Below, in pieces: positions 6,912 to 21,648 of a DNA stretch of 21,648 nucleotides. Origin of the DNA: a virus. Under the pieces are notes generated by a model. It did no database searches and was not told where the DNA came from. It was given only the letters and a program-made list of their open reading frames with translations. The position numbers were made by a program, and so were the translations under genes. The DNA lies in the IMG/VR virus record IMGVR_UViG_3300042987_000667, positions 1 through 21,648 of that record. One strand, 5' to 3'. Positions within the stretch are counted from its first letter, which is position 1; each line of letters starts with the position of its first letter.

Positions 6912-8072
6912 ATGGTAGAATCAAAATACAAAATTTACGTTGACATGGACGGCGTTTTAACGGACTGGGAAAAACAGTTTGAAAAAACATTCGGTGTTCC
7001 AGTTGAAACATATGAAGCTGAATATGGCAAAGAACAACGTTATAATTTAGTAAAAAGTCATAGTCCAAATTTTTATGCTACAATGCCGTGGATGAGTGAT
7101 GGTAAAATACTCTATAATTTTATCAAAGAGTTTCCCACTGAAATATTAAGTCATGCAACGGATCCAGAGTGTAAACAAGGCAAAGAAAAATGGTTAACAG
7201 ATCACAACGTTACATTTAAACAGAATCTGGTTCCACACAGAGAAGATAAGGCTAAATTTGCAAGTCCAAACGCAATATTAATTGATGACCGAAAAGACAA
7301 TATTGAGGAATTTGTAAATGCTGGTGGTATTGGAATATTACATACCGACGCAACAGATACCATCAACAAGTTAAAGGAATTACTTGGGGTAAAACAATCA
7401 TTTAGAATTTACAACAGTATACTTTGCCCTGACATATGGGACGGCGACGCCATTAAACCAGACGTATTGGATCGTTTGTTAAATATTGCTACAACATTCT
7501 ACAAAAGCACAGATCTTACTGCTCCAATTGAAGACATATTGTTCCTTGGAAGCACCGCCGGTTATAACTGGACACCAACTAGCGATATAGATTTACATAT
7601 AGCAATTGATTTTTCAAAAATTGACGAAAATAAAGATCTGGTTCAAAAACTGGTAGATGGATATAAAAGTCAATGGAATGACAAACATGATATAAAAATA
7701 AACAACCATCCAGTAGAAGTTTACATTCAAGATGTTGGACATGAAACCAGAAGTCAAGCATCCTACAGTGTATTAAACAATAAATGGATAAAAAAACCAA
7801 AATATGAAGCTCCACAAATTGACACAGAAACTGTAAAAACAAAATATAAAGATTTAGTATCAAAGATCAATAAAGCTGTAGATGATCAAAATCTTGAAAA
7901 ACTCAAAGCTATGGTCAAACGTTTGTATGATATGCGTGAAACTGGCCTTAGCTCAGGAGGAGAATTTAGTATAGAAAATATTGTTTTTAAACTTTTGAGA
8001 AGTAGTGGTTTTGTTAATAAACTCAAAACTAATATAACAAAACTCACAGACAAAGAGCTCAACAAAATATAA
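6912..8072 (+). CDS. HAD 5'-nucleotidase-like + nucleotidyltransferase fusion
   Basis: This 386-residue protein has two enzyme domains. Residues 5-155 form a HAD fold of the 5'-nucleotidase type: YVDMDGVLTDW (D11, D13), ILSHATD (S80), lysines at 91-93, and ILIDDRKDNIEEF (D125, D126). Residues 165-295 are a minimal polymerase-beta-type nucleotidyltransferase: FLGSTAGYNWTPTSDIDLHI (G213, S214, D225, D227), with a third acid in HPVEVYIQD (E269). Residues 300-386 are helical. All key acids are present in both domains, so both may be active. The substrate is unknown, and end-healing of RNA or nucleotide-group transfer are guesses. It is placed between small late genes and the tail tube gene, so it is probably expressed late. 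Confidence 0.8.
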   Translation: MVESKYKIYVDMDGVLTDWEKQFEKTFGVPVETYEAEYGKEQRYNLVKSHSPNFYATMPWMSDGKILYNFIKEFPTEILSHATDPECKQGKEKWLTDHNVTFKQNLVPHREDKAKFASPNAILIDDRKDNIEEFVNAGGIGILHTDATDTINKLKELLGVKQSFRIYNSILCPDIWDGDAIKPDVLDRLLNIATTFYKSTDLTAPIEDILFLGSTAGYNWTPTSDIDLHIAIDFSKIDENKDLVQKLVDGYKSQWNDKHDIKINNHPVEVYIQDVGHETRSQASYSVLNNKWIKKPKYEAPQIDTETVKTKYKDLVSKINKAVDDQNLEKLKAMVKRLYDMRETGLSSGGEFSIENIVFKLLRSSGFVNKLKTNITKLTDKELNKI

Positions 8073-8700: not shown

Positions 8701-9489
8701 ATGAACAAAGTAACGGTGCTACTACCAGGCGGATTCAAACCACCACATGCTGGACATTTGGGGTTAGCTAACAAATTTGCCAGTAGGGCTGATGTAGGCA
8801 AAGTAATTGTGATGGTTGGACCCAGTGAACGTGATGGCATTAACCGTCAACAAAGTGTGGCCATTTGGAACCTATTGCCTACCAACCCAAAGATCAAAGT
8901 GGTTCCAGTAGATGATGACAGTCCAATGAACGCTGCATTTGGATATGTATTTAGTTTGCCAAAAGACAGTAATGAAGTGATTGCTTTGGCTGCAAGTTCA
9001 AAGAGTCCAGAAGACGCAAAACGAAGCAAGATATTTTCTGCTGCTGTTCAACGTTATAAAACTAAACCAACAAAGGACGGCCGAACAGCACCAGAAAATG
9101 TATCGTCTGTGGAAATGACTGATGATGCTCCAGTATTGTATCAAGGTAGATCTGATGACAAAAACGGACAAAGTATCAGTGCTAGCACATTGAGACAAGA
9201 TTTAGCAAACAACGATTTTGAAAATTTTACCACTAATTATCCAGGTGTAAAAACTGGTGTGGTCAAAAGTATTTATAATATATTAACCAAAAATAAATCT
9301 ATGGATGAAGCTAAAAAACAAAAGTATAAGGAAATAGTGAAACAAATGATCAAGGAAGACAATAGTTTTATGGATGCGTTAATTGGGCCAGAATCAAAAT
9401 TTAAAGATGCTATTGCTAAAATTAATACCAGAGCTACAATTTTGACTAAAGCGGCTCAAGATGCTCAAAATAAAATAAAGCCAAAATAA
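8701..9489 (+). CDS. HxGH nucleotidylyltransferase (cytidylyltransferase-like superfamily)
   Basis: This is a 262-residue protein. The N-terminal Rossmann-type domain carries PGGFKPPHAGHLGLA with the HxGH motif (H16, H19), and the second signature SISASTLRQDL (I159-R165) corresponds to ISSTxxR. These are the hallmarks of NMN adenylyltransferase, phosphopantetheine adenylyltransferase and related enzymes that join a nucleoside monophosphate to a phosphate acceptor. Which substrate is used cannot be told; NadM-like NAD synthesis is a reasonable guess. Residues about 200-262 are an added charged helical tail (DEAKKQKYKEIVKQMIKE). It starts after the tail tube terminator with its own motif and stands alone among structural genes. 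Confidence 0.8.
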   Translation: MNKVTVLLPGGFKPPHAGHLGLANKFASRADVGKVIVMVGPSERDGINRQQSVAIWNLLPTNPKIKVVPVDDDSPMNAAFGYVFSLPKDSNEVIALAASSKSPEDAKRSKIFSAAVQRYKTKPTKDGRTAPENVSSVEMTDDAPVLYQGRSDDKNGQSISASTLRQDLANNDFENFTTNYPGVKTGVVKSIYNILTKNKSMDEAKKQKYKEIVKQMIKEDNSFMDALIGPESKFKDAIAKINTRATILTKAAQDAQNKIKPK

Positions 9490-13244: not shown

Positions 13245-15860
13245 ATGGCAAATAGCAATACATTCGTAGAAGGATTTACAGGTGGATCAGACCAAATCAC
13301 CACGTTATCAAATGTTCAAGGTGCTGGTTTAACACTTCCTCCACCTGATTTTATTAATATTAGATCCCCAGGCAAAATACGTGCTTTGTTTGAAAATAAC
13401 GGAAATGCTGAAAAATTATATAGTATTAATAAACCAGAAGATGTGGGTCTGGCAGATGCTTTAAAGAAAAGATATGATTATAAAAATCCAAATCAAGGTC
13501 AACGATCTGGAAAAATTACTAATATAGTCAATGCAGCTGCCGCAGATGCAAATTTAATTAGAAAATATCTTGGATCTAGTAATGGAACACAATTCATAGT
13601 CAAACAATTGATTCTTCAAGGATATCAAGCATTTGACGAAACAAAGGTATATAATCCAGGTTCACCATTAATTGCTGCATTAAGACCCGCGTCATTTGGT
13701 TTACTCGACAGACCAACTCGTCATATTGACACCAGTAATGTTCTTGGAGGTATTATAAACGGACTTGGCATTGGAAGTGTGGTATCCACAGTTGGTGCTT
13801 TGGTTGGCAGCGCACCTCCTCAACCACCACCACCAAGATCGTCTGTTGCTAGCACAGCAAGTAACGGACTTGGTTTAAGCACATTAACCAGTTTAGTTGG
13901 TGGTGGAGACCGTGCTGATGAAGTGGTCGCTCCTATAGCTAGAGGTGACGTTAAAGACCTGTTGAGAGGACAAACTGCTACAAATGCATATAATGCTGCT
14001 AGATACACAAGATTAGTAAATCAAGGCGGAGGATCATTTTTTGGCAGACTATTATCTGGTATTGGAAAATTTATACAAAACAATACTGCTATAGGTGGCA
14101 TTCTTCCCCCAAAACAACCGTGGGCATCAAAATACCGTGCAGACGAACAAACCTATGATTTGTATCTAAACGCTGGCAAATTATTTAATCCATCATCAAC
14201 CGGTGTAGGTGGTGGAGGTATTTTAAGTGGATTGTTGAATTCGATTGGATTTGGCAAAAGAGCAAGTTATTCTCAAGCTGTTCCTCAACGTTTTTATGGT
14301 GAGTCTAGTAACAAACCAAATGTTGTAAGATCAACAGTTACAATCAATTTGGCTAGATCAAGTAAATCGTCAATAAGTTATTCAACAACTGATGAAGTTG
14401 GTGTATATGACGGAGGAACACCATTTAAATCCAATTCAATAGGAACCGAAAAGAGTAAAAATTCGGAACAAGGCAATTCATTAAAATATGGAGACTTAGT
14501 TGGTGGAGGAATTGACAATAATCTTGAAATTGAAAAAAGTGATCAACTATTAAACTATAAAGCATTAGTTGAACAACCAAAAAATTTCAAAGACACGTAT
14601 GCTGACGAAGAAAATCTTTACGTTAAAAAAATTATTAACAATTTAGATTCGGTTTTAACAGATATTGGTGGACCTAATAAAACAAAATATAACGTAAATG
14701 GTAAAGGATTAAAACCCCTTCAATTCGCAAAATTTAACACAAATGAAATTGGTATGGATTTTGTTAAAGCCGTTGATCCTGCCAAGAAGAATCAACCTGG
14801 TATCGACAACAAAACATATCAAGGATTGTTTAGAGCCAATCCACAACCAGGCAAAGAAGTTCCCACAAGACTTGGTGAAGGTCCAAATGATAGATATATC
14901 AGACCAACAAATAACGTTGATTATGTAAATGCATTGGAAGTATTAAGACCACCACAATTTGATGCTTTATATGCTAACACAAAAGAGTTTGGATCATATG
15001 GACCAGATATCATCAAGTTTTATTTCTATGATATTGTAAACAAGAAATACATACCATTCAATGCCACAGTAAAAAGCATTAATGATAATAATAATGCTAC
15101 TTGGGAAACTATTGAATATTTAGGACGACCAGACAAGTTGTATTACTATAAAGGATTTACTCGTAGCGTTAGCTTTAATTTCTCTGTAGTAGCACATAGT
15201 ATCAAAGAGTTGATGCCTATGTGGAACAGAATCAATTATTTAGTTGGATTGACAAGACCATCCAATTATACACTACAACAGTTTGGTGGATTTATGGTGG
15301 CTCCAATGGTTCAACTTACGTTAGGTGATTTCTATAAGAATCATAACGTGGTTATCAATAGTTGTAACGTAACTATTCCAGAAGATGCTGGTTGGGAAAC
15401 AATACCAGAAGAAGCATCAAAAAATAATCAAAATTGGTATTATGGTCCATACTATGGATCTAATCCACAAAAAGCAATTAATTGGAACGAAGAAAATATT
15501 TTACTGAATAGTTCGGTTGACCAAAGAAAAGCTAATTCACTGGGTAGAGTAGCACAATTTCCAAGACAAGCTGATATTCAAATTGAAATGAATGTTCTTG
15601 AAAAAGATCTTCCTAAGACAGGTAGAGCAATATGGGGTGATGCTCCAGTCAAAAATGTCACAGTGGATGAATTTGCTAATCAAATAGCTGCTCAATATAA
15701 TTTACAAATGGATAAACAACAGTTGGCAAGAGATGGAGTTACAAGAGTTGATACTTATGATGATGTATTAAATGGACTGAACACATTTTCAGTTAATGTT
15801 CGTTATGATAATGATTTAGCAGCCGCAAACAATAATACACAACAAACAACCAATCCATAA
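13245..15860 (+). CDS. baseplate protein, tail-tube cap/initiator-like (gp48/gp54 position)
   Basis: This is an 871-residue protein. The C-terminal part (about 585-770) looks conserved and beta-rich: IIKFYFYDIVNKKYIPFNAT, WETIEYLGRPDKLYYYKGF, VAHSIKELMPMWNRINYLVG, GGFMVAPMVQLTLGDFYKN and CNVTIPEDAGWETIPEE. Similar sequences occur downstream of tape measure genes in T4-like environmental phages, which fits a baseplate ring or tube initiator, a role taken by gp48 and gp54 in T4. Residues 1-580 are low in known motifs, with Gly/Pro/Ser-rich stretches (SAPPQPPPPRSS; STGVGGGGILSG). Naming rests on position and beta pattern, not on a firm family match. The next gene starts 2 nt downstream. Confidence 0.5.
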   Translation: MANSNTFVEGFTGGSDQITTLSNVQGAGLTLPPPDFINIRSPGKIRALFENNGNAEKLYSINKPEDVGLADALKKRYDYKNPNQGQRSGKITNIVNAAAADANLIRKYLGSSNGTQFIVKQLILQGYQAFDETKVYNPGSPLIAALRPASFGLLDRPTRHIDTSNVLGGIINGLGIGSVVSTVGALVGSAPPQPPPPRSSVASTASNGLGLSTLTSLVGGGDRADEVVAPIARGDVKDLLRGQTATNAYNAARYTRLVNQGGGSFFGRLLSGIGKFIQNNTAIGGILPPKQPWASKYRADEQTYDLYLNAGKLFNPSSTGVGGGGILSGLLNSIGFGKRASYSQAVPQRFYGESSNKPNVVRSTVTINLARSSKSSISYSTTDEVGVYDGGTPFKSNSIGTEKSKNSEQGNSLKYGDLVGGGIDNNLEIEKSDQLLNYKALVEQPKNFKDTYADEENLYVKKIINNLDSVLTDIGGPNKTKYNVNGKGLKPLQFAKFNTNEIGMDFVKAVDPAKKNQPGIDNKTYQGLFRANPQPGKEVPTRLGEGPNDRYIRPTNNVDYVNALEVLRPPQFDALYANTKEFGSYGPDIIKFYFYDIVNKKYIPFNATVKSINDNNNATWETIEYLGRPDKLYYYKGFTRSVSFNFSVVAHSIKELMPMWNRINYLVGLTRPSNYTLQQFGGFMVAPMVQLTLGDFYKNHNVVINSCNVTIPEDAGWETIPEEASKNNQNWYYGPYYGSNPQKAINWNEENILLNSSVDQRKANSLGRVAQFPRQADIQIEMNVLEKDLPKTGRAIWGDAPVKNVTVDEFANQIAAQYNLQMDKQQLARDGVTRVDTYDDVLNGLNTFSVNVRYDNDLAAANNNTQQTTNP

Positions 15861-15862
15861 TT

Positions 15863-16153
15863 ATGAGATATCAATTTACACCTATAAGTAAAAGATGGGA
15901 TGGTCAACGAGTATATAACACTACGTATTACCCTGTTATTCAACCAGACACCACTGACATTTATATTATTGCTGGTGAACAAGATTACCTTGACAGTTTA
16001 GCTAAAAAATATTATGGTAATGAATCATATTGGTGGGTTATTGCAAATGCAAATAATTTAGGTAATGGAAAACTTTCTATACCGCTTGGAAAACAAATAA
16101 GAATTCCAGGCAATTTACCAATAATAATTCAGTCATTAAAAAATGCTAATTAA
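15863..16153 (+). CDS. baseplate wedge protein, gp53-like with LysM-type domain
   Basis: This 96-residue protein starts 2 nt after the previous stop. After an N-terminal strand region (WDGQRVYNTTYYPVIQP) comes a LysM-like fold at residues 36-84: AGEQDYLDSLAKKYYGNESYWWVIANANN, then GKLSIPLGKQIRIPG (key pattern LAxxYYGxxxxWWVIANANN). T4 gp53 and the LysM proteins of many contractile tails have this layout and link wedges to the central hub. It is shorter than T4 gp53 (196 residues), so it may be the minimal domain. It sits in the same unit as the tube-cap-like and hub-like genes, as expected. Confidence 0.75.
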   Translation: MRYQFTPISKRWDGQRVYNTTYYPVIQPDTTDIYIIAGEQDYLDSLAKKYYGNESYWWVIANANNLGNGKLSIPLGKQIRIPGNLPIIIQSLKNAN

Positions 16154-16158
16154 GTTAT

Positions 16159-19100
16159 ATGGCACAAGACACCGATCCAAACAAACAGCCAACATGGGCC
16201 TCACCACAAACAAATGATATTGTAGAAGAGGTTAGATGGTGGGAAGCGCAAAATATTCCGTGGCAATTGGTTCGTGAGTTAAGAAGACGTAGTAATAATA
16301 CTAATATTGGTCAAAATGCCGGTGTAAATACTGTTATTAATTTTCAAACAGACCATGCTACATACAGAGGACCAATGACTGCGTGGGTTAGAGCATTTTC
16401 TAATGGAACGGGTCAGATTGGAAGTCCAACGGTTCCAGTTAGTAAGTATTTGTTTAAGAACGACCAACTTCCAAAGTATGATGGATTTTTGTTACAAGGA
16501 GGTGCTGGGTTTGGCGAAGCCTATGGATACAAACGAGAAGGAAATACATTAGTTGAAGATAAAGCAATCATTGGATATGAAGCCACAGGTAAACCACATT
16601 ACATAGACACGAAATATAGAACAAATACATACTATGATTCTGGACCACACTGTCCTTCGGGTCAAAAGTTCCCTCAAAATTCTGTAGTTCCATCTATACT
16701 ACCTCCTCCAGGCATAATATCAGTCAACGTTAAAACCAATAAAGACATGATGTCAAATGCTACTATAAACTGGAAATGTTATAGTTTGGCACAACTTGAA
16801 TATATGATGCCTTTTTGGTTAAGTCCAAAAATTAATGTATTTTTAGAATTTGGTTGGAACTTATTCAATATTGACTCATTGCTTACTCTGTCAGATAAAC
16901 TAGATTGTTATAAATTAATTGTTAGACCCGAACAAGCGTTGGAAAGATATTACAAGTCTTTTGGTAATTATGGATTGGTAACTGGTATTATATCAAAATA
17001 CAACTTCTCAACAGATGATGGATTTGTTTATAACTGCACAACGGAATTAATATCACGTCAAGCAATGTATGCAGGTTTTCGTGCTGACAATCCAACGGTA
17101 ACAGATAAAGAGGATGGTTCCTCAACCGAATATGTAAACTTAAAAGAATTTTTTTCTACTTATCTTCAATTTACAAAGGAAGTAGTTGAAGAAAGAGATA
17201 ATTTTTTAAATTATATACTTAAAAATGCTAAAAAAATTAGTGAAAAAATTAGTAAGGATGCAAAGGAAGCGAAAAAGACACAATCAACCACTGAAGTTTT
17301 TTTGAGTAAATTGTCTGCGTTAGGTAGTTCACCATCACAACCAACACCATCAACAACACCACAGTCATCCAATTCACAACCATCAATAAATTCAAAATTA
17401 TTTTATAATGGCAACCCAGAGAATAGAATATTCATGGGTCGTTATCAAAGTGTATATAAAGGTTCTAAAATACCAAAAGCTGCTGCTAAAAAAACTATAA
17501 GTCGTGCTGAAGCAGCAAGTAGAGGCGGTCGTAGAAATCCCACACCTGGAAATCCATCGCCTCCGGGTTCAAGAGCAGCAGCTGCAGCAGCTGCAGGTCA
17601 ACGTGGCAATCAACTATCTACAAACCCATCGCCTCCGGGTTCAAGAGCAGCAGCTGCAGCAGCGGCAGGTCAACGTGGCAATCCAATTCCAACACCGCCA
17701 AAACCAGCAGATTCGCCTACGATTTCATATGGATCATTATCAGAGGGACCATTTCAAGGTCGCAGTATTGTGTCTTTTGCTGACAAATCAACCGACTTTG
17801 ATTATGAAGACGGATCAAATGATGAAGTGTGGTATCAATTGGACTTTGTTTTTGAATTGATCAATTTGTTTTGTTCTGAAAAATCAACAAAAAATAACAA
17901 AATAGACATCTCAGACATCATCATCACAGCACATCCTAATTTGATTTCGTGTGATAAACATGTTTTAATTCCAAATCCAATAGCTCCAAAAATTAGTATT
18001 GGCAGAACTCCATCAGTTAGAGATGTCGCAGGTAACAAAAAAGTATCTGATGGATATCTAGAAACGATTGATGCTTCTCAAAATTTATTTATAGATCAAT
18101 TTTATTGGAAAAAATTTGACAAAGAAATACAGGCTGGACAATTAGCTGAAAAAAATAAAGCAAACAGTAAACTTGATCCAGAATGTATTGATCCAAACAC
18201 ACCGGATTCAACTATTTGGAAAGCTGCTTTAAAAGCAAGAAATACGTTCAAAACGTTAGGATCCGTGCGTGATAATTTAGATATTGTAATAAATTGGTTA
18301 TATTATAATATTAATAATCCTAATAAATCATCTGCCGCGTTTCCATTCGCAAACTCACAGAACAAATATCAACCATATTATTATGGATACTTAAAACATC
18401 TTTACATTAGTAAGTCTAAGTTGATTGAAATTGGAAAAGACAATGAATTGAAAACGTTGGAACAAATTGTTAATAAAATTTTAAGTATAATAAATGAATC
18501 GGTTGATAATTTTTGGAACTTGCAAACAGTTAAAAGTGACAATGGTGGTTTATCTATAATTGATAAAAATTTAAAAATTCCAAGACAAGCTGCAATTTAC
18601 AAATTTGATATCGGATCAACTTCCAATGTTATTAAAAAAATTGACTTTAATGTCAACATGACTAATGAACAAGTCAATCAAGTATTGTATGGTAGTGGTC
18701 AAAATGCAGCAAATGTAATGTCAAAGATCACCGAGGTTTCAAAAAACATGGACATCAGTGCCAAACAAAAGAAAGATAGAATTACGCAAATTAAAACCGG
18801 ATTACCATCTTTAGTTTATGCGGATCGATTTGATGATCTTGAGTTACAAAAACAGATTGAACAAAAATTAAAAGATATTGATAAAGAAATAGCAGAAGAA
18901 GAAAAAAGAACACAAGAAAATCCAAATGAACCTCAAAATAATGGTGTGCCACATGGACCAATAGTTGACAAAAACGAGGAAATACGACAACTACAAACAC
19001 AAGGTAAACAATCTGATGAAATACTGGTGATGCGAATGATCGCACTAAAACCAGGCCAAGATCCATATGCTTTTGTGGAATCGACCGATAAATGGTTTTC

Positions 19101-19491
19101 GAGCATAAGAAAAGGTGCGCAACAAAAAGCACTCGTAGAAAACACAACGAGTGGAGATATAAAATTAGGATGGGTATATTTGAATTTACCAAGCACACTA
19201 AAAGGTAAATTAAGAGAGATGTTGGATGATGGAGACACAATCAATAACTCGGGCAAATACTCAGGACCAGCAGACAACTTTACATTAACTTTGACATTTG
19301 ACGGTATATTTGGATTTAGAATGTTTCAACACATTGCTATAGCAAACTTACCAAAACCATATGTTCCAGGCAACGTTATATTTATGATTAATGAAGTTGA
19401 CCATCAATTAAACGCCGGTAAGTGGGAAACTGTAGTTACGGCAATGTTGAGATGTGCTCCTGATCAAGATTACAAATATATATTGGTATGA
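16159..19491 (+). CDS. large baseplate hub-like protein
   Basis: This is a 1110-residue protein, 5 nt after gp53-like. The N-terminal 380 residues include YRGPMTAWVRAFSNGTG, LPKYDGFLLQGGAGFGEAYG, PPPGIISVNVKTNKDMMSNA and WLSPKINVFLEFGWNLF. The C-terminus has GIFGFRMFQHIAIANLPKPY and INEVDHQLNAGKWETVV, a pattern like the last barrel of gp27/gpD-type hub proteins. Between them, residues about 385-520 form a Ser/Pro/Ala-rich linker with two copies of PSPPGSRAAAAAAAGQRGN. Residues about 860-960 are charged helix. A hub role (central trimer joining tube and wedges) is inferred from the C-terminal pattern and gene order. It is far larger than T4 gp27 (391), so it may combine several parts. Confidence 0.55.
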   Translation: MAQDTDPNKQPTWASPQTNDIVEEVRWWEAQNIPWQLVRELRRRSNNTNIGQNAGVNTVINFQTDHATYRGPMTAWVRAFSNGTGQIGSPTVPVSKYLFKNDQLPKYDGFLLQGGAGFGEAYGYKREGNTLVEDKAIIGYEATGKPHYIDTKYRTNTYYDSGPHCPSGQKFPQNSVVPSILPPPGIISVNVKTNKDMMSNATINWKCYSLAQLEYMMPFWLSPKINVFLEFGWNLFNIDSLLTLSDKLDCYKLIVRPEQALERYYKSFGNYGLVTGIISKYNFSTDDGFVYNCTTELISRQAMYAGFRADNPTVTDKEDGSSTEYVNLKEFFSTYLQFTKEVVEERDNFLNYILKNAKKISEKISKDAKEAKKTQSTTEVFLSKLSALGSSPSQPTPSTTPQSSNSQPSINSKLFYNGNPENRIFMGRYQSVYKGSKIPKAAAKKTISRAEAASRGGRRNPTPGNPSPPGSRAAAAAAAGQRGNQLSTNPSPPGSRAAAAAAAGQRGNPIPTPPKPADSPTISYGSLSEGPFQGRSIVSFADKSTDFDYEDGSNDEVWYQLDFVFELINLFCSEKSTKNNKIDISDIIITAHPNLISCDKHVLIPNPIAPKISIGRTPSVRDVAGNKKVSDGYLETIDASQNLFIDQFYWKKFDKEIQAGQLAEKNKANSKLDPECIDPNTPDSTIWKAALKARNTFKTLGSVRDNLDIVINWLYYNINNPNKSSAAFPFANSQNKYQPYYYGYLKHLYISKSKLIEIGKDNELKTLEQIVNKILSIINESVDNFWNLQTVKSDNGGLSIIDKNLKIPRQAAIYKFDIGSTSNVIKKIDFNVNMTNEQVNQVLYGSGQNAANVMSKITEVSKNMDISAKQKKDRITQIKTGLPSLVYADRFDDLELQKQIEQKLKDIDKEIAEEEKRTQENPNEPQNNGVPHGPIVDKNEEIRQLQTQGKQSDEILVMRMIALKPGQDPYAFVESTDKWFSSIRKGAQQKALVENTTSGDIKLGWVYLNLPSTLKGKLREMLDDGDTINNSGKYSGPADNFTLTLTFDGIFGFRMFQHIAIANLPKPYVPGNVIFMINEVDHQLNAGKWETVVTAMLRCAPDQDYKYILV
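17554..17683 (+). repeat. 58-bp in-frame direct repeat (poly-Ala linker)
   Basis: Copies at 17554-17611 and 17626-17683 differ at one base by eye and are offset by 72 bp, exactly 24 codons. Each encodes PSPPGSR, seven Ala and GQRGN. The copies are much richer in G+C than flanking DNA. The near identity points to a recent duplication. Confidence 0.9.
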
Positions 19492-19874
19492 TTCAAGACG
19501 CAGATCCAGAATTGGTGGCTAAATTAGGATTGTCAGATTACGAAATGACATATCCAAGCACCTATTTACCTACACCATCCAAGAATGATTATCAATATGG
19601 GTTTATTACTAGATATTTTGTTGGACGAATTAATCAACGTCAAATTATAGAAACATGTGCTAGAGATTATAATGCTATTAATATTAAGTTTTTTCTCAAA
19701 ACAAAAGTTGATTGGCAAATAAGTGGCAGAAAAAATAATTTATATCAAGGTAAAATGTTGATGGAAGCAGGTGTTCAAGAATATAATCTTATACAAATCA
19801 ACAAAGCAAAGTCTGTATTGCCTGGAATAGAAACGGTGTTGAATAACCCCCTTCAATTTTGGCAAGGTTATTAA
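19488..19874 (+). CDS. hypothetical baseplate-associated protein
   Basis: This 128-residue protein overlaps the hub-like stop by 4 nt (ATGA, 19488-19491), so it is translated by coupling. It has YPSTYLPTPSKNDYQYGFITRYFVGRINQ near residues 22-50 (key pattern YLPTPSxxDYQxGFITRYF), then an alpha/beta part with VDWQISGRKN and a hydrophobic C-terminus. Similar short proteins with a YLPTPxxxDYxxGxxxRYF pattern occur after hub genes in related phages. Function is unknown, but the position suggests a small baseplate component. Confidence 0.6.
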   Translation: MIQDADPELVAKLGLSDYEMTYPSTYLPTPSKNDYQYGFITRYFVGRINQRQIIETCARDYNAINIKFFLKTKVDWQISGRKNNLYQGKMLMEAGVQEYNLIQINKAKSVLPGIETVLNNPLQFWQGY

Positions 19875-19880
19875 AATAAG

Positions 19881-21233
19881 TTGGACATACTGAACTTGTG
19901 GTATATACTACAAGCTGTGACACAGTATCAAAAAATTTATCTCAAGTTTGTATTTCGAGACAATCACCTACATCCATCTCAAGACAAGGTGATTGCAGCG
20001 TTTGTGTATGAATTTGATACAAAACAGTCACACTACTATAACTTTAATCATCCAGATGTTGTTGTAAATTCTTCACTACGAGAGTTCAAGAAACTGTTGG
20101 TCAATAAGAAGGTTTATGTTAACAATAAGAAACGATACAAGTATCATATTCCAAATGTGGATTTGTATGATGTAAATTTGTTTAGTTTTCTCAAGGATGG
20201 TAATGTGGTTGAAATGCCAGTTCATTCTTATACAACTCAACTACAAATGGTTCATCACAACATGAATCATATCAACATTGTGATTCCGTATGTTGTTCAC
20301 CAAAATGAATTTGATGCGGAGGTAGACGTTGTAGACGGTTATGAAGACGAAAATGTAGAATCATATTGTTTCAAGTTTTTTAATAATATTGTGACTGACA
20401 CATTGTTTGAGGTGGAACGCAATGGTCTTCATGTAAACAAACCAGTGTTTCAATCATACTTTTCCAATGCAAAAGTTGTGAGTGGTGAACATAATGGTAG
20501 CGATGATACTGTATATAGTGAGTATTATATTTACAATCCGACTGGTAGACCAAGCAACAAGTTTGATTCGGTCAATTATGTTGCTCTAAACAAAGAAGAT
20601 GGTTGTAGAACAAGTTTTACATCACGATTTGCAACTGGTAAATTGTTGATGGTAGACTTTACTGGGTTTCATCCATATCTGGTGGCACAACTCATACAAT
20701 ACCAAGTTCCAGAGAATGAGACTATTTATGAACATTTGGCAAAACAGTATTATAATATTAACACTGTTGATGCAGAAACATTGGGTAAGTCTAAAAAACA
20801 GACGATGGTCAATTTGTATGGTCAGATAGGTGACAAACATTTACATATTCCATACTTTCAAAAAGTGGATGAACTCAAGAACAAATATTGGGAGGAGTTT
20901 ACTACTAAAGGATATGTAAAGACTCCAATTTACAAAAGAAAGATTAGTAGTCATCATATCATCGATCCTAACAAAAATAAGTTATTTGCTTATATAATTC
21001 AAGCAACTGAGACTGAATATGGACTTAACAGTTTGGGTAACGTGAACAAATATGTTAGAGGAAAAGACATAATTCCTATTTTGTATATTTATGACAGTAT
21101 TTTGTTTGACGTTGGTGAAAATGTCAAACCCGAGGAAATCAAGGATGTTGTAGATATTATTAGAAATAAACGGTTCAAAGTCAAGGTCTACGAAGGAAAT
21201 AATTACAATGAAATGGAATTAGTGACAATTTAA
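19881..21233 (+). CDS. compact family A DNA-polymerase-like protein
   Basis: This 450-residue protein has the order of PolA motifs. LFEVERNGLHVNKPVF (175-190) matches the PolA ERNGVxID start. TGRPSNKFDSVNYVAL (221-236) matches TGRxSSxxPNLQN with R223. LLMVDFTGFHPYLVAQL (255-271) is motif A with D259, but the steric-gate Glu is H264. GKSKKQTMVNLYGQIG (302-317) is a motif B-like helix. GYVKTPIYKRKI (344-355) matches GYVxTxxGRRR. YIIQATETEYGLNSL (371-385) matches PIQGTAADxxK with Q374. ILYIYDSILFDV (400-411) is motif C with D405 but S406 for Glu. Residues about 35-110 resemble a degraded 3'-5' exonuclease domain. The thumb is reduced to about 30 residues. The start is TTG 19881, with GTG 19917 possible, and no Shine-Dalgarno is seen. 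Confidence 0.75.
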   Translation: MDILNLWYILQAVTQYQKIYLKFVFRDNHLHPSQDKVIAAFVYEFDTKQSHYYNFNHPDVVVNSSLREFKKLLVNKKVYVNNKKRYKYHIPNVDLYDVNLFSFLKDGNVVEMPVHSYTTQLQMVHHNMNHINIVIPYVVHQNEFDAEVDVVDGYEDENVESYCFKFFNNIVTDTLFEVERNGLHVNKPVFQSYFSNAKVVSGEHNGSDDTVYSEYYIYNPTGRPSNKFDSVNYVALNKEDGCRTSFTSRFATGKLLMVDFTGFHPYLVAQLIQYQVPENETIYEHLAKQYYNINTVDAETLGKSKKQTMVNLYGQIGDKHLHIPYFQKVDELKNKYWEEFTTKGYVKTPIYKRKISSHHIIDPNKNKLFAYIIQATETEYGLNSLGNVNKYVRGKDIIPILYIYDSILFDVGENVKPEEIKDVVDIIRNKRFKVKVYEGNNYNEMELVTI

Positions 21234-21244: not shown

Positions 21245-21248
21245 ATTG

Positions 21249-21648
21249 ATGAAATTCAACTCAATTATAAACGATGTTTGTTGTGACAGTCGTATAAAAG
21301 ATGGCGTGTTGAGGCTAGAAGTGCCTGAACACGTATTTGTTTTACAAGAATATCTAGAAAAAGCGGGGTTTAGTTTAGAAACAATTGTAAACAATACGGC
21401 TAAATTGTTTGAGGCGGGCAAATTCCCAGAACGTCAAGCATACAATAAAGACGGTATTTTAGTTACATTTCCTAGTAAAGAATATCGTGATAGAGCAGTT
21501 GATAAAGGAACACATTTTGCAGAAAATCCTAAAAAGAACGTTGGAACATTATTCTCGCCTACTGATGCAGGCGGACTCTCAACCGCTGATATTGAAAAGA
21601 CCGATTCTGAGGAAGAAAAACAAGACTCAGACAAATCTGACACAGTAT
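21249..21648 (+). CDS. hypothetical protein with acidic tail (3' partial)
   Basis: ATG 21249 opens a frame that runs to the window end without a stop (133 codons visible). It begins MKFNSIINDVCCDSRIKDG and continues with a helical segment (HVFVLQEYLEKAGFSLE) and FPERQAYNKDGILVTFPSKEYR. The last 30 residues are strongly acidic (DIEKTDSEEEKQDSDKSD). No family is recognised. The sites at 21236-21244 and the 4-nt spacing support this start. Confidence 0.7.
   Translation, partial: MKFNSIINDVCCDSRIKDGVLRLEVPEHVFVLQEYLEKAGFSLETIVNNTAKLFEAGKFPERQAYNKDGILVTFPSKEYRDRAVDKGTHFAENPKKNVGTLFSPTDAGGLSTADIEKTDSEEEKQDSDKSDTV

What the first reader, a model, noticed from the sequence alone, without database searches (positions are those of the whole stretch)
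19881..21233. Compact PolA-like polymerase in a baseplate gene cluster
The sequence shows, in correct order, counterparts of the PolA palm start (ERNGLHV), TGRxS (R223), motif A (D259), motif B (K305/K306, Y313), GYVxT, QGTAAD (Q374) and motif C (D405). Known biology: family A polymerases have about 600-900 residues, and T4-like phages usually replicate with a family B enzyme from the early region. Here the protein has only 450 residues, a thumb of about 30 residues, a degraded exonuclease-like region, His in place of the motif A steric-gate Glu (H264), and YDS in place of HDE. Inference: this is a diverged, possibly specialised polymerase (repair, end-filling, primer or non-templated synthesis, or a virion-carried enzyme) expressed with late genes.
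Basis: partly seen in the sequence, partly recalled or inferred. Interest (0 to 1): 0.75.

Follow-up and report, generated by a model that had tools for sequence, protein, structure and literature searches.

The report
Compact second phage DNA polymerase (divPolA1)
The gene encodes a shrunken Pol I-type polymerase that many aquatic T4-like viruses carry beside their main replication polymerase; the family was described in 2024 as divPolA1, and new here are an invariant active-site change and a promoter that starts the message at its GTG start codon.

Summary
The ORF encodes a real family A polymerase-fold protein, but its start is GTG 19917 (438 aa), not TTG 19881. A 42-sequence AlphaFold2 model (pLDDT 93.6) matches Bst Pol I at Z 28.3. 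R211, D247, K293, Y301, Q362 and D393 are invariant across three clades about 25% identical; dN/dS is 0.03-0.10.

It is a new clade of divPolA1 (Yutin et al. 2024, PMC11348598): intact palm, truncated thumb, dead exonuclease domain, always a second polymerase. Related phages also encode a full-size PolB (or PolA) and usually a DnaG-type primase.

The 'baseplate cluster, late expression' reading fails. The gene is the first of the replication module (SSB-UvsX-FEN-DnaB) and follows the baseplate genes. In 18/18 representatives of this clade a -35 TTGAC-like box lies at near-fixed distance before an invariant GTG, and 17/18 also have a -10 box, predicting a leaderless message. In the Flavobacterium-phage clade a terminator precedes the gene.

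Not in the 2024 text: Glu710 is always His, Arg754 of RxxxK is lost, His881 is Tyr. YDS instead of HDE is half ordinary, since T5-type PolA has HDS. Best function: short-patch gap filling with FEN, SSB and UvsX (inferred).

The parts
19917..21233 (+). compact PolA-type polymerase CDS (divPolA1), GTG start, 438 aa plus stop
   Evidence: GTG is the only start shared by the clade (18/18 representatives); homology; model
19881..19887 (+). -35 element TTGGACA (consensus TTGACA in relatives)
   Evidence: TTGAC/TTGGAC 34-36 nt before GTG in 18/18 representatives, 0.14 expected from shuffles
19904..19909 (+). -10 element TATACT; places the predicted transcription start at or next to the G of GTG 19917
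   Evidence: TAnnnT at this spacing in 17/18 representatives versus 2.3 expected; both boxes 17/18 versus 0.018
20541..20549 (+). TGR motif, R211 (Pol I R668)
20655..20678 (+). motif A DFTGFHPY: catalytic D247 (D705) and H252 at the steric-gate position (E710)
   Evidence: D and H invariant in 44 representatives; E in all seven reference PolAs
20781..20822 (+). motif B LGKSKKQTMVNLYG: K293 (K758), M297 (F762), Y301 (Y766); Arg of RxxxK (R754) absent (L289)
21000..21002 (+). Q362 (Pol I Q849)
21090..21098 (+). motif C YDS: Y392 (H881), catalytic D393 (D882), S394 (E883)
19917..20351 (+). N-terminal exonuclease-like domain without the DEDD acids but with its own invariant residues H19, H45, K71, K72, D85, P124
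   Evidence: model residues 3-435 align with Bst 312-876; conservation
21246..21648 (+). next gene, cut by the window end; homologue of the 609-aa protein g609 that follows the polymerase throughout this clade; no known family
13245..19874 (+). upstream baseplate genes (hub1 13245-15860, gp53/LysM-like 15863-16153, hub2 16159-19491, small 19488-19874); conserved neighbours, not part of the polymerase unit

Best explanation
The gene encodes a divPolA1-type enzyme: a compact family A polymerase used as the phage's second, accessory DNA polymerase. Shown by sequence and model: PolA palm and fingers with the core catalytic residues, thumb reduced to a stub, exonuclease-like domain without proofreading acids, gene placed first in the gp32-UvsX-FEN-DnaB module with its own promoter, and a separate full-size polymerase plus a primase in related genomes. 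Inferred: it is made early, binds short gapped or recombining DNA with low processivity, and fills short patches. It would supply the polymerase half of a split Pol I whose 5'-3' exonuclease half is the operon's FEN, in Okazaki-fragment maturation and UvsX-driven recombination repair. The invariant His at the steric-gate position and the lost RxxxK arginine imply changed nucleotide handling (weaker sugar discrimination or lower affinity), which suits patch synthesis better than bulk replication.
For: Fold: AF2 pLDDT 93.6, Z 28.3 over 403 residues to Bst Pol I, Klenow TMq 0.79. Homology. Catalytic residues invariant. Purifying selection, dN/dS mostly 0.03-0.10. Thumb interval from ERNG to TGR is 42 residues against 125 in E. 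coli Pol I. Conserved order hub1-gp53-(hub2)-small-polymerase-...-SSB-RecA-FEN-helicase in the commonest arrangements among 240 loci of three clades, gene identities confirmed by Pfam/PHROGs. Separate PolB; separate 777-791 aa PolA in the immuto clade. Primase. Own promoter and GTG; terminator before the gene in the immuto clade. Monophyletic with support 1.0, apart from the full-size PolA of the same phages. Published precedent divPolA1.
Against: No biochemical data. The FEN partnership rests on gene order only. T4 does the same job with its replicase plus RNase H, so a second polymerase is not obviously needed. Loss of the RxxxK arginine and of the thumb could mean weak or altered activity. 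Yutin et al. note that the divPolA1 context looks more replicative than that of the 'regular' polymerase, so it might have a central replisome role.
Confidence: 0.5

Rival explanations
1. It is a core replisome polymerase, for example extending primers or copying one strand, and the 'regular' PolB or PolA is a partner or does another job.
For: Always first in the SSB-UvsX-FEN-helicase module, whereas the regular polymerase lies elsewhere and may be family A, B or C.
Against: Thumb stub and no proofreading acids argue against processive, accurate copying of 150-300 kb genomes; a canonical gp43-like PolB is present.
Confidence: 0.2
2. It is a translesion or error-tolerant repair polymerase acting on UvsX-coated or damaged DNA.
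For: Remodelled nucleotide pocket (E710H, R754 lost, H881Y), no proofreading acids, UvsX neighbour.
Against: No lesion-bypass signature beyond these changes; its presence in every clade studied suggests a routine role.
Confidence: 0.15
3. It is an RNA- or mixed-nucleotide-synthesising enzyme (primer maker or small RNA polymerase), as suggested by loss of the steric-gate Glu.
For: H252 replaces E710 in every member; the window clade has Met at the F762 position as T7 RNAP does, and YDS resembles its HDS (T7 RNAP residues from general knowledge).
Against: Met is clade-specific (Phe in the other clades); Ser/Ala after the motif C Asp is ordinary in phage PolA; DnaG-type primase coexists in most genomes, including the 303-kb member of this clade.
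Confidence: 0.09
4. It is a late, virion-associated enzyme.
For: Lies directly after baseplate hub genes.
Against: Own sigma70-type promoter, terminator in front of the gene in the immuto clade, downstream operon is replicative.
Confidence: 0.03
5. It is a catalytically dead PolA fold retained as a DNA-binding or scaffold protein.
For: Several nucleotide-contact residues are altered.
Against: Both metal-binding Asp and the Lys758, Tyr766, Gln849 and Arg668 equivalents are invariant over 44 diverse members.
Confidence: 0.03

Closest known systems
divPolA1 (Yutin et al. 2024, PMC11348598; Flavobacterium phage immuto and related phages, 14 in all)
   Same: PolA palm with main catalytic residues, truncated thumb, inactivated exonuclease domain, second polymerase beside a regular one, replication genes downstream. 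The immuto protein is a homologue of the window protein (25% identity over 80% of it, E 7e-27).
   Different: The window belongs to a clade about 25% identical to the immuto clade. E710H, R754 loss and H881Y are not mentioned in the paper's text; Met at F762 and the leaderless GTG promoter are features of this clade. Whether any of the paper's 14 genomes falls in this clade could not be tested: the accessions I tried are not held.
Bacterial DNA polymerase I (Klenow, Bst, Taq)
   Same: Fold over nearly the whole chain including the vestigial exonuclease domain; R668, D705, K758, Y766, Q849, D882.
   Different: About 13-16% identity, thumb interval 42 against 125 residues, E710H, R754 lost, no FEN domain in the same chain.
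T5-, SPO1- and N4-like phage PolA replicases
   Same: Family A palm; Ser or Ala after the motif C Asp, as here.
   Different: 855-1101 aa in the examples used, with E710, R754 and H881; from general knowledge they are the replicase of their phage.
divPolA2 (barbaviruses, same paper)
   Same: Extra divergent PolA without a canonical thumb, beside a PolB.
   Different: Variable gene neighbourhood and an unrelated N-terminal domain, as described.
TV-Pol (Iyer et al. 2008, PMC2579912)
   Same: 400-600 aa minimal PolA-related polymerase of selfish elements.
   Different: TV-Pol keeps the helical thumb and RxxxK, is linked to D5 helicases, and never to nucleases.

Membership tests
Family A DNA polymerase superfamily (PolA palm/fingers) | Palm fold with two metal-binding Asp (motifs A, C) and motif B K and Y | tested here: met
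   D-D distance itself not measured
Family A DNA polymerase superfamily (PolA palm/fingers) | Sequence-profile relationship to DNA_pol_A | tested here: met
   14 of 42 members match PF00476, immuto-clade members over the curated cut-off; the window protein alone does not match
Family A DNA polymerase superfamily (PolA palm/fingers) | Templated DNA synthesis | not testable with these tools
   needs biochemistry
divPolA1 | Homologue of the Flavobacterium phage immuto divPolA1 protein | tested here: met
   25% identity over 80% of the query, E 7e-27; one monophyletic group, support 1.0
divPolA1 | Truncated thumb | tested here: met
   ERNG to TGR 42 residues against 125 in E. coli Pol I
divPolA1 | Exonuclease domain present but catalytic acids replaced | tested here: met
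   domain aligns with Bst 312 onward; only four columns with 70% or more acid in residues 1-145 and no DxE pair
divPolA1 | Second polymerase beside a regular PolA, PolB or PolC | tested here: met
   met in relatives; the window itself is a 21.6-kb fragment without that region
divPolA1 | Replication genes downstream | tested here: met
   gene identities; met in relatives, the window ends inside the next gene
TV-Pol | RxxxK motif in the fingers | tested here: not met
   the R position (289) is L/M/I or Y in all 42 members
TV-Pol | Thumb of two antiparallel helices | tested here: inconclusive
   interval too short by sequence; geometry not inspected
Single-subunit (T7-like) RNA polymerase | Best structural match to RNA polymerases | tested here: inconclusive
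   listed matches are DNA polymerases; absence from a capped list excludes nothing
Single-subunit (T7-like) RNA polymerase | De novo RNA synthesis from a promoter | not testable with these tools
   needs biochemistry

The most novel reading that the evidence does not exclude
The invariant His at the steric-gate position together with the lost RxxxK arginine marks an enzyme with altered substrate choice: it uses rNTPs or mixed nucleotides to make or extend primers in recombination-dependent replication. It would be a PolA-fold primer enzyme working beside a DnaG-type primase, produced from a conserved leaderless GUG message.
Probability: 0.1. Interest if true: 0.75.

Novelty: new member of a known kind. 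Interest (0 to 1): 0.42.

Why it matters
A two-polymerase strategy is common in abundant freshwater and marine T4-like phages, yet I found no report of a divPolA1 enzyme being assayed. The invariant E710H change and missing thumb give a direct test of how little of Pol I is needed for synthesis and how sugar selection can be rebuilt. The promoter-on-start-codon architecture gives a testable case of conserved leaderless GUG translation in phages. For annotation, the window's protein escapes Pfam, PHROGs and NCBIfam.

Tried and rejected
Primase substitute: rejected as the general explanation, because DnaG-type Toprim primase is present in the immuto and Microcystis-phage clades and in this clade's 303-kb genome and five other contigs. 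It was not found in G001, which may be incomplete.

Only replicase: rejected in relatives by PolB or full-size PolA.

Truncated or decaying PolA: rejected by dN/dS mostly 0.03-0.10, invariant residues and a long monophyletic stem.

RNAP-like motif B (Met at F762): first looked like a pointer to RNA synthesis, but it is clade-specific.

HMMER search with the 17-sequence profile against PDB found nothing; the 42-sequence profile did. The single sequence gave only noise. No relatives were found in GTDB genomes. A viral scan with the 484-kb phage protein found none. The first AF2 model with 17 sequences was weaker and was replaced. Three accessions of the divPolA1 paper (MK892584, LR796625, MK892784) are not in the held collections. 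RNAP chains did not appear among the listed structure matches; no conclusion is drawn. IQ-TREE failed on a thread setting, so the tree is FastTree only. No host was established for this clade.

Full report
What is there. The window is a 21,648-base viral contig fragment with a T4-like tail and baseplate cluster (tube, hub, tape measure, gp53-like) followed by the ORF in question. The ORF is open from 19881 to 21233. On its own it matches nothing convincing in Pfam, PHROGs or PDB sequences. IMG/VR holds many relatives: 99 confirmed stretches for a profile of the window's clade, 312 for the Flavobacterium phage immuto protein and 109 for the Microcystis phage Mel-JY01 protein; some may be counted by more than one query. 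None was found in GTDB genomes. In the phage collection the relatives are immuto ('DNA polymerase family A'), Mel-JY01 and a 484-kb uncultured phage.

Start codon and promoter. The members of the window's clade share one possible start, a GTG just before the conserved N-terminal strand; in the window it is 19917, so the protein has 438 aa. Upstream, 18 of 18 representatives under 80% identity have TTGAC (TTGGAC in the window) 34-36 nt before the GTG, 17 of 18 also have TAnnnT at the -10 spacing, and shuffles give 0.018 sequences with both. This spacing puts the transcription start at or next to the G of GTG, so the message is predicted to be leaderless. Start codons 4-10 nt after such promoters are also enriched elsewhere in these genomes: 41 for 99 promoter matches in G011, where 7 would be expected from the background rate of 0.0101 per position, and 12 for 41 in G001. 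In the immuto clade the gene instead follows a stem-loop plus T-run, in 42 of 54 distinct upstream regions, directly after the baseplate operon. Both facts speak against simple late co-expression with the tail genes.

Homology and fold. Profile comparison with seven PolA proteins gives E=1.2e-10 over 253 columns. A 42-sequence family HMM finds Klenow at E=0.0015 with motifs aligned in register. 14 of 42 members match DNA_pol_A, nine match PHROG DNA polymerase families, and several match NCBIfam Pol I models. The 42-sequence AlphaFold2 model has pLDDT 93.6 and pTM 0.89. It matches Bst Pol I large fragment with Z 28.3, 403 residues at 3.1 A, Klenow at Foldseek TMq 0.79, and phage PolAs in BFVD. 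Model residues 3-435 span Bst 312-876, so the N-terminal third is the exonuclease-like domain; it lacks the catalytic acids but has its own invariant residues H19, H45, K71, K72, D85 and P124. Between ERNG and TGR there are 42 residues where E. coli Pol I has 125: the thumb is a stub.

Active site. Pol I R668, D705, K758, Y766, Q849 and D882 are all present and invariant (R211, D247, K293, Y301, Q362, D393). E710, the sugar-selecting residue, is His in every member, while all seven reference PolAs have Glu. R754 of RxxxK is replaced by L, M, I or Y. H881 is Tyr. Ser or Ala at E883 is not special: the T5-like, SPO1-like, actinobacteriophage and N4-like PolA share it. Met at the F762 position is confined to the window's clade. 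Selection is purifying, dN/dS mostly 0.03-0.10, and the family is monophyletic with support 1.0 on a long stem, apart from the full-size PolA of the immuto phages.

Context. In 240 loci of three clades the commonest arrangements all read tape measure-hub1-gp53-(hub2)-small-polymerase-(clade-specific genes)-SSB-RecA-FEN-helicase, as far as each contig reaches. The neighbours are gp32-like SSB, UvsX-like RecA, 5'-3' exonuclease (FEN) and DnaB-type helicase. The large genomes also have a full-size polymerase: PolB in G001, G007, G008, G011, G012, G018, Mel-JY01 and the 484-kb phage, or a 777-791 aa PolA in the immuto clade. A DnaG-type primase is present in most, including the 303-kb member of the window's clade. 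The compact enzyme is therefore neither the only replicase nor a substitute primase.

What it most likely does. I favour an accessory polymerase that fills short gaps together with the operon's FEN, SSB and UvsX, in effect a split Pol I, in Okazaki-fragment maturation and recombination repair. Shown: polymerase fold, intact core catalytic residues, missing thumb and proofreading acids, replication gene context, coexisting replicase and primase in relatives. Inferred: activity, early timing, gap substrate, FEN partnership. A core replisome role, translesion synthesis and RNA or mixed-nucleotide synthesis remain open.

Comparison with the literature. Yutin et al. 2024 (PMC11348598) describe divPolA1 in 14 phages including immuto, with the same palm, truncated thumb, inactivated exonuclease, downstream replication genes and a coexisting regular polymerase; only that paper and its preprint use the name in the held library. 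The window protein meets these features, directly or in its close relatives, and is filed as a new clade of divPolA1. The paper's main text does not mention the steric gate, histidine or a promoter; its figures and supplements were not examined. TV-Pol (PMC2579912) is excluded by the missing RxxxK arginine.

Verdict. The family is known, so novelty is modest; the invariant E710H, the R754 loss and the conserved promoter-on-GTG architecture are the parts worth testing.

Noticed in passing
L063-L071 (G001), L082-L088 (G002), L367-L382 (G011): Many TTGAC/TAnnnT promoters in these phages are followed by an ATG or GTG start 4-10 nt after the -10 box, peaking at 6 and 9 nt (41 starts for 99 promoters in G011), which suggests a class of leaderless genes; not seen in immuto.
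   Followed up: partly
upstream of the polymerase in loci L187-L265 (immuto clade): A stem-loop plus T-run terminator, with loop and stem changes between phages, separates the baseplate operon from the replication operon in 42 of 54 distinct upstream regions.
   Followed up: partly
window, about 17500-17680, inside hub2 16159-19491: The hub2 protein has a low-complexity insert with two near-identical copies of NPSPPGSRAAAAAAAGQRGN; coordinates approximate.
   Followed up: no
window 6912-8072: A protein within the tail cluster with weak matches to a 5' nucleotidase (NT5C) at its N-terminus and a Pol beta-type nucleotidyltransferase in the middle, both below curated cut-offs.
   Followed up: no
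window 8701-9489: A cytidylyltransferase-like protein (E 0.0029, below cut-off) next to tail tube and hub genes.
   Followed up: no
L058:16589-17875 (Microcystis phage Mel-JY01): The replication module of the Microcystis-phage clade contains an S-adenosylmethionine lyase-like protein (Pfam E 4.4e-10), a type known as anti-restriction in T3.
   Followed up: no
L070:13995-14900: A 301-aa protein with repeated NHPMYGK-type motifs, probably a homing endonuclease, sits between g132 and SSB in G001; judged from the sequence only.
   Followed up: no
L096 (G007 25794-30215): The DnaB-type helicase of G007 is split over three ORFs, and RecA is split in another locus, as if interrupted by introns or inteins.
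   Followed up: no
L070:15369-17198 (g609 in G001); window 21246-21648: The 609-aa protein that follows the polymerase throughout this clade matches no Pfam or PHROG family and may be a cofactor of the enzyme.
   Followed up: partly
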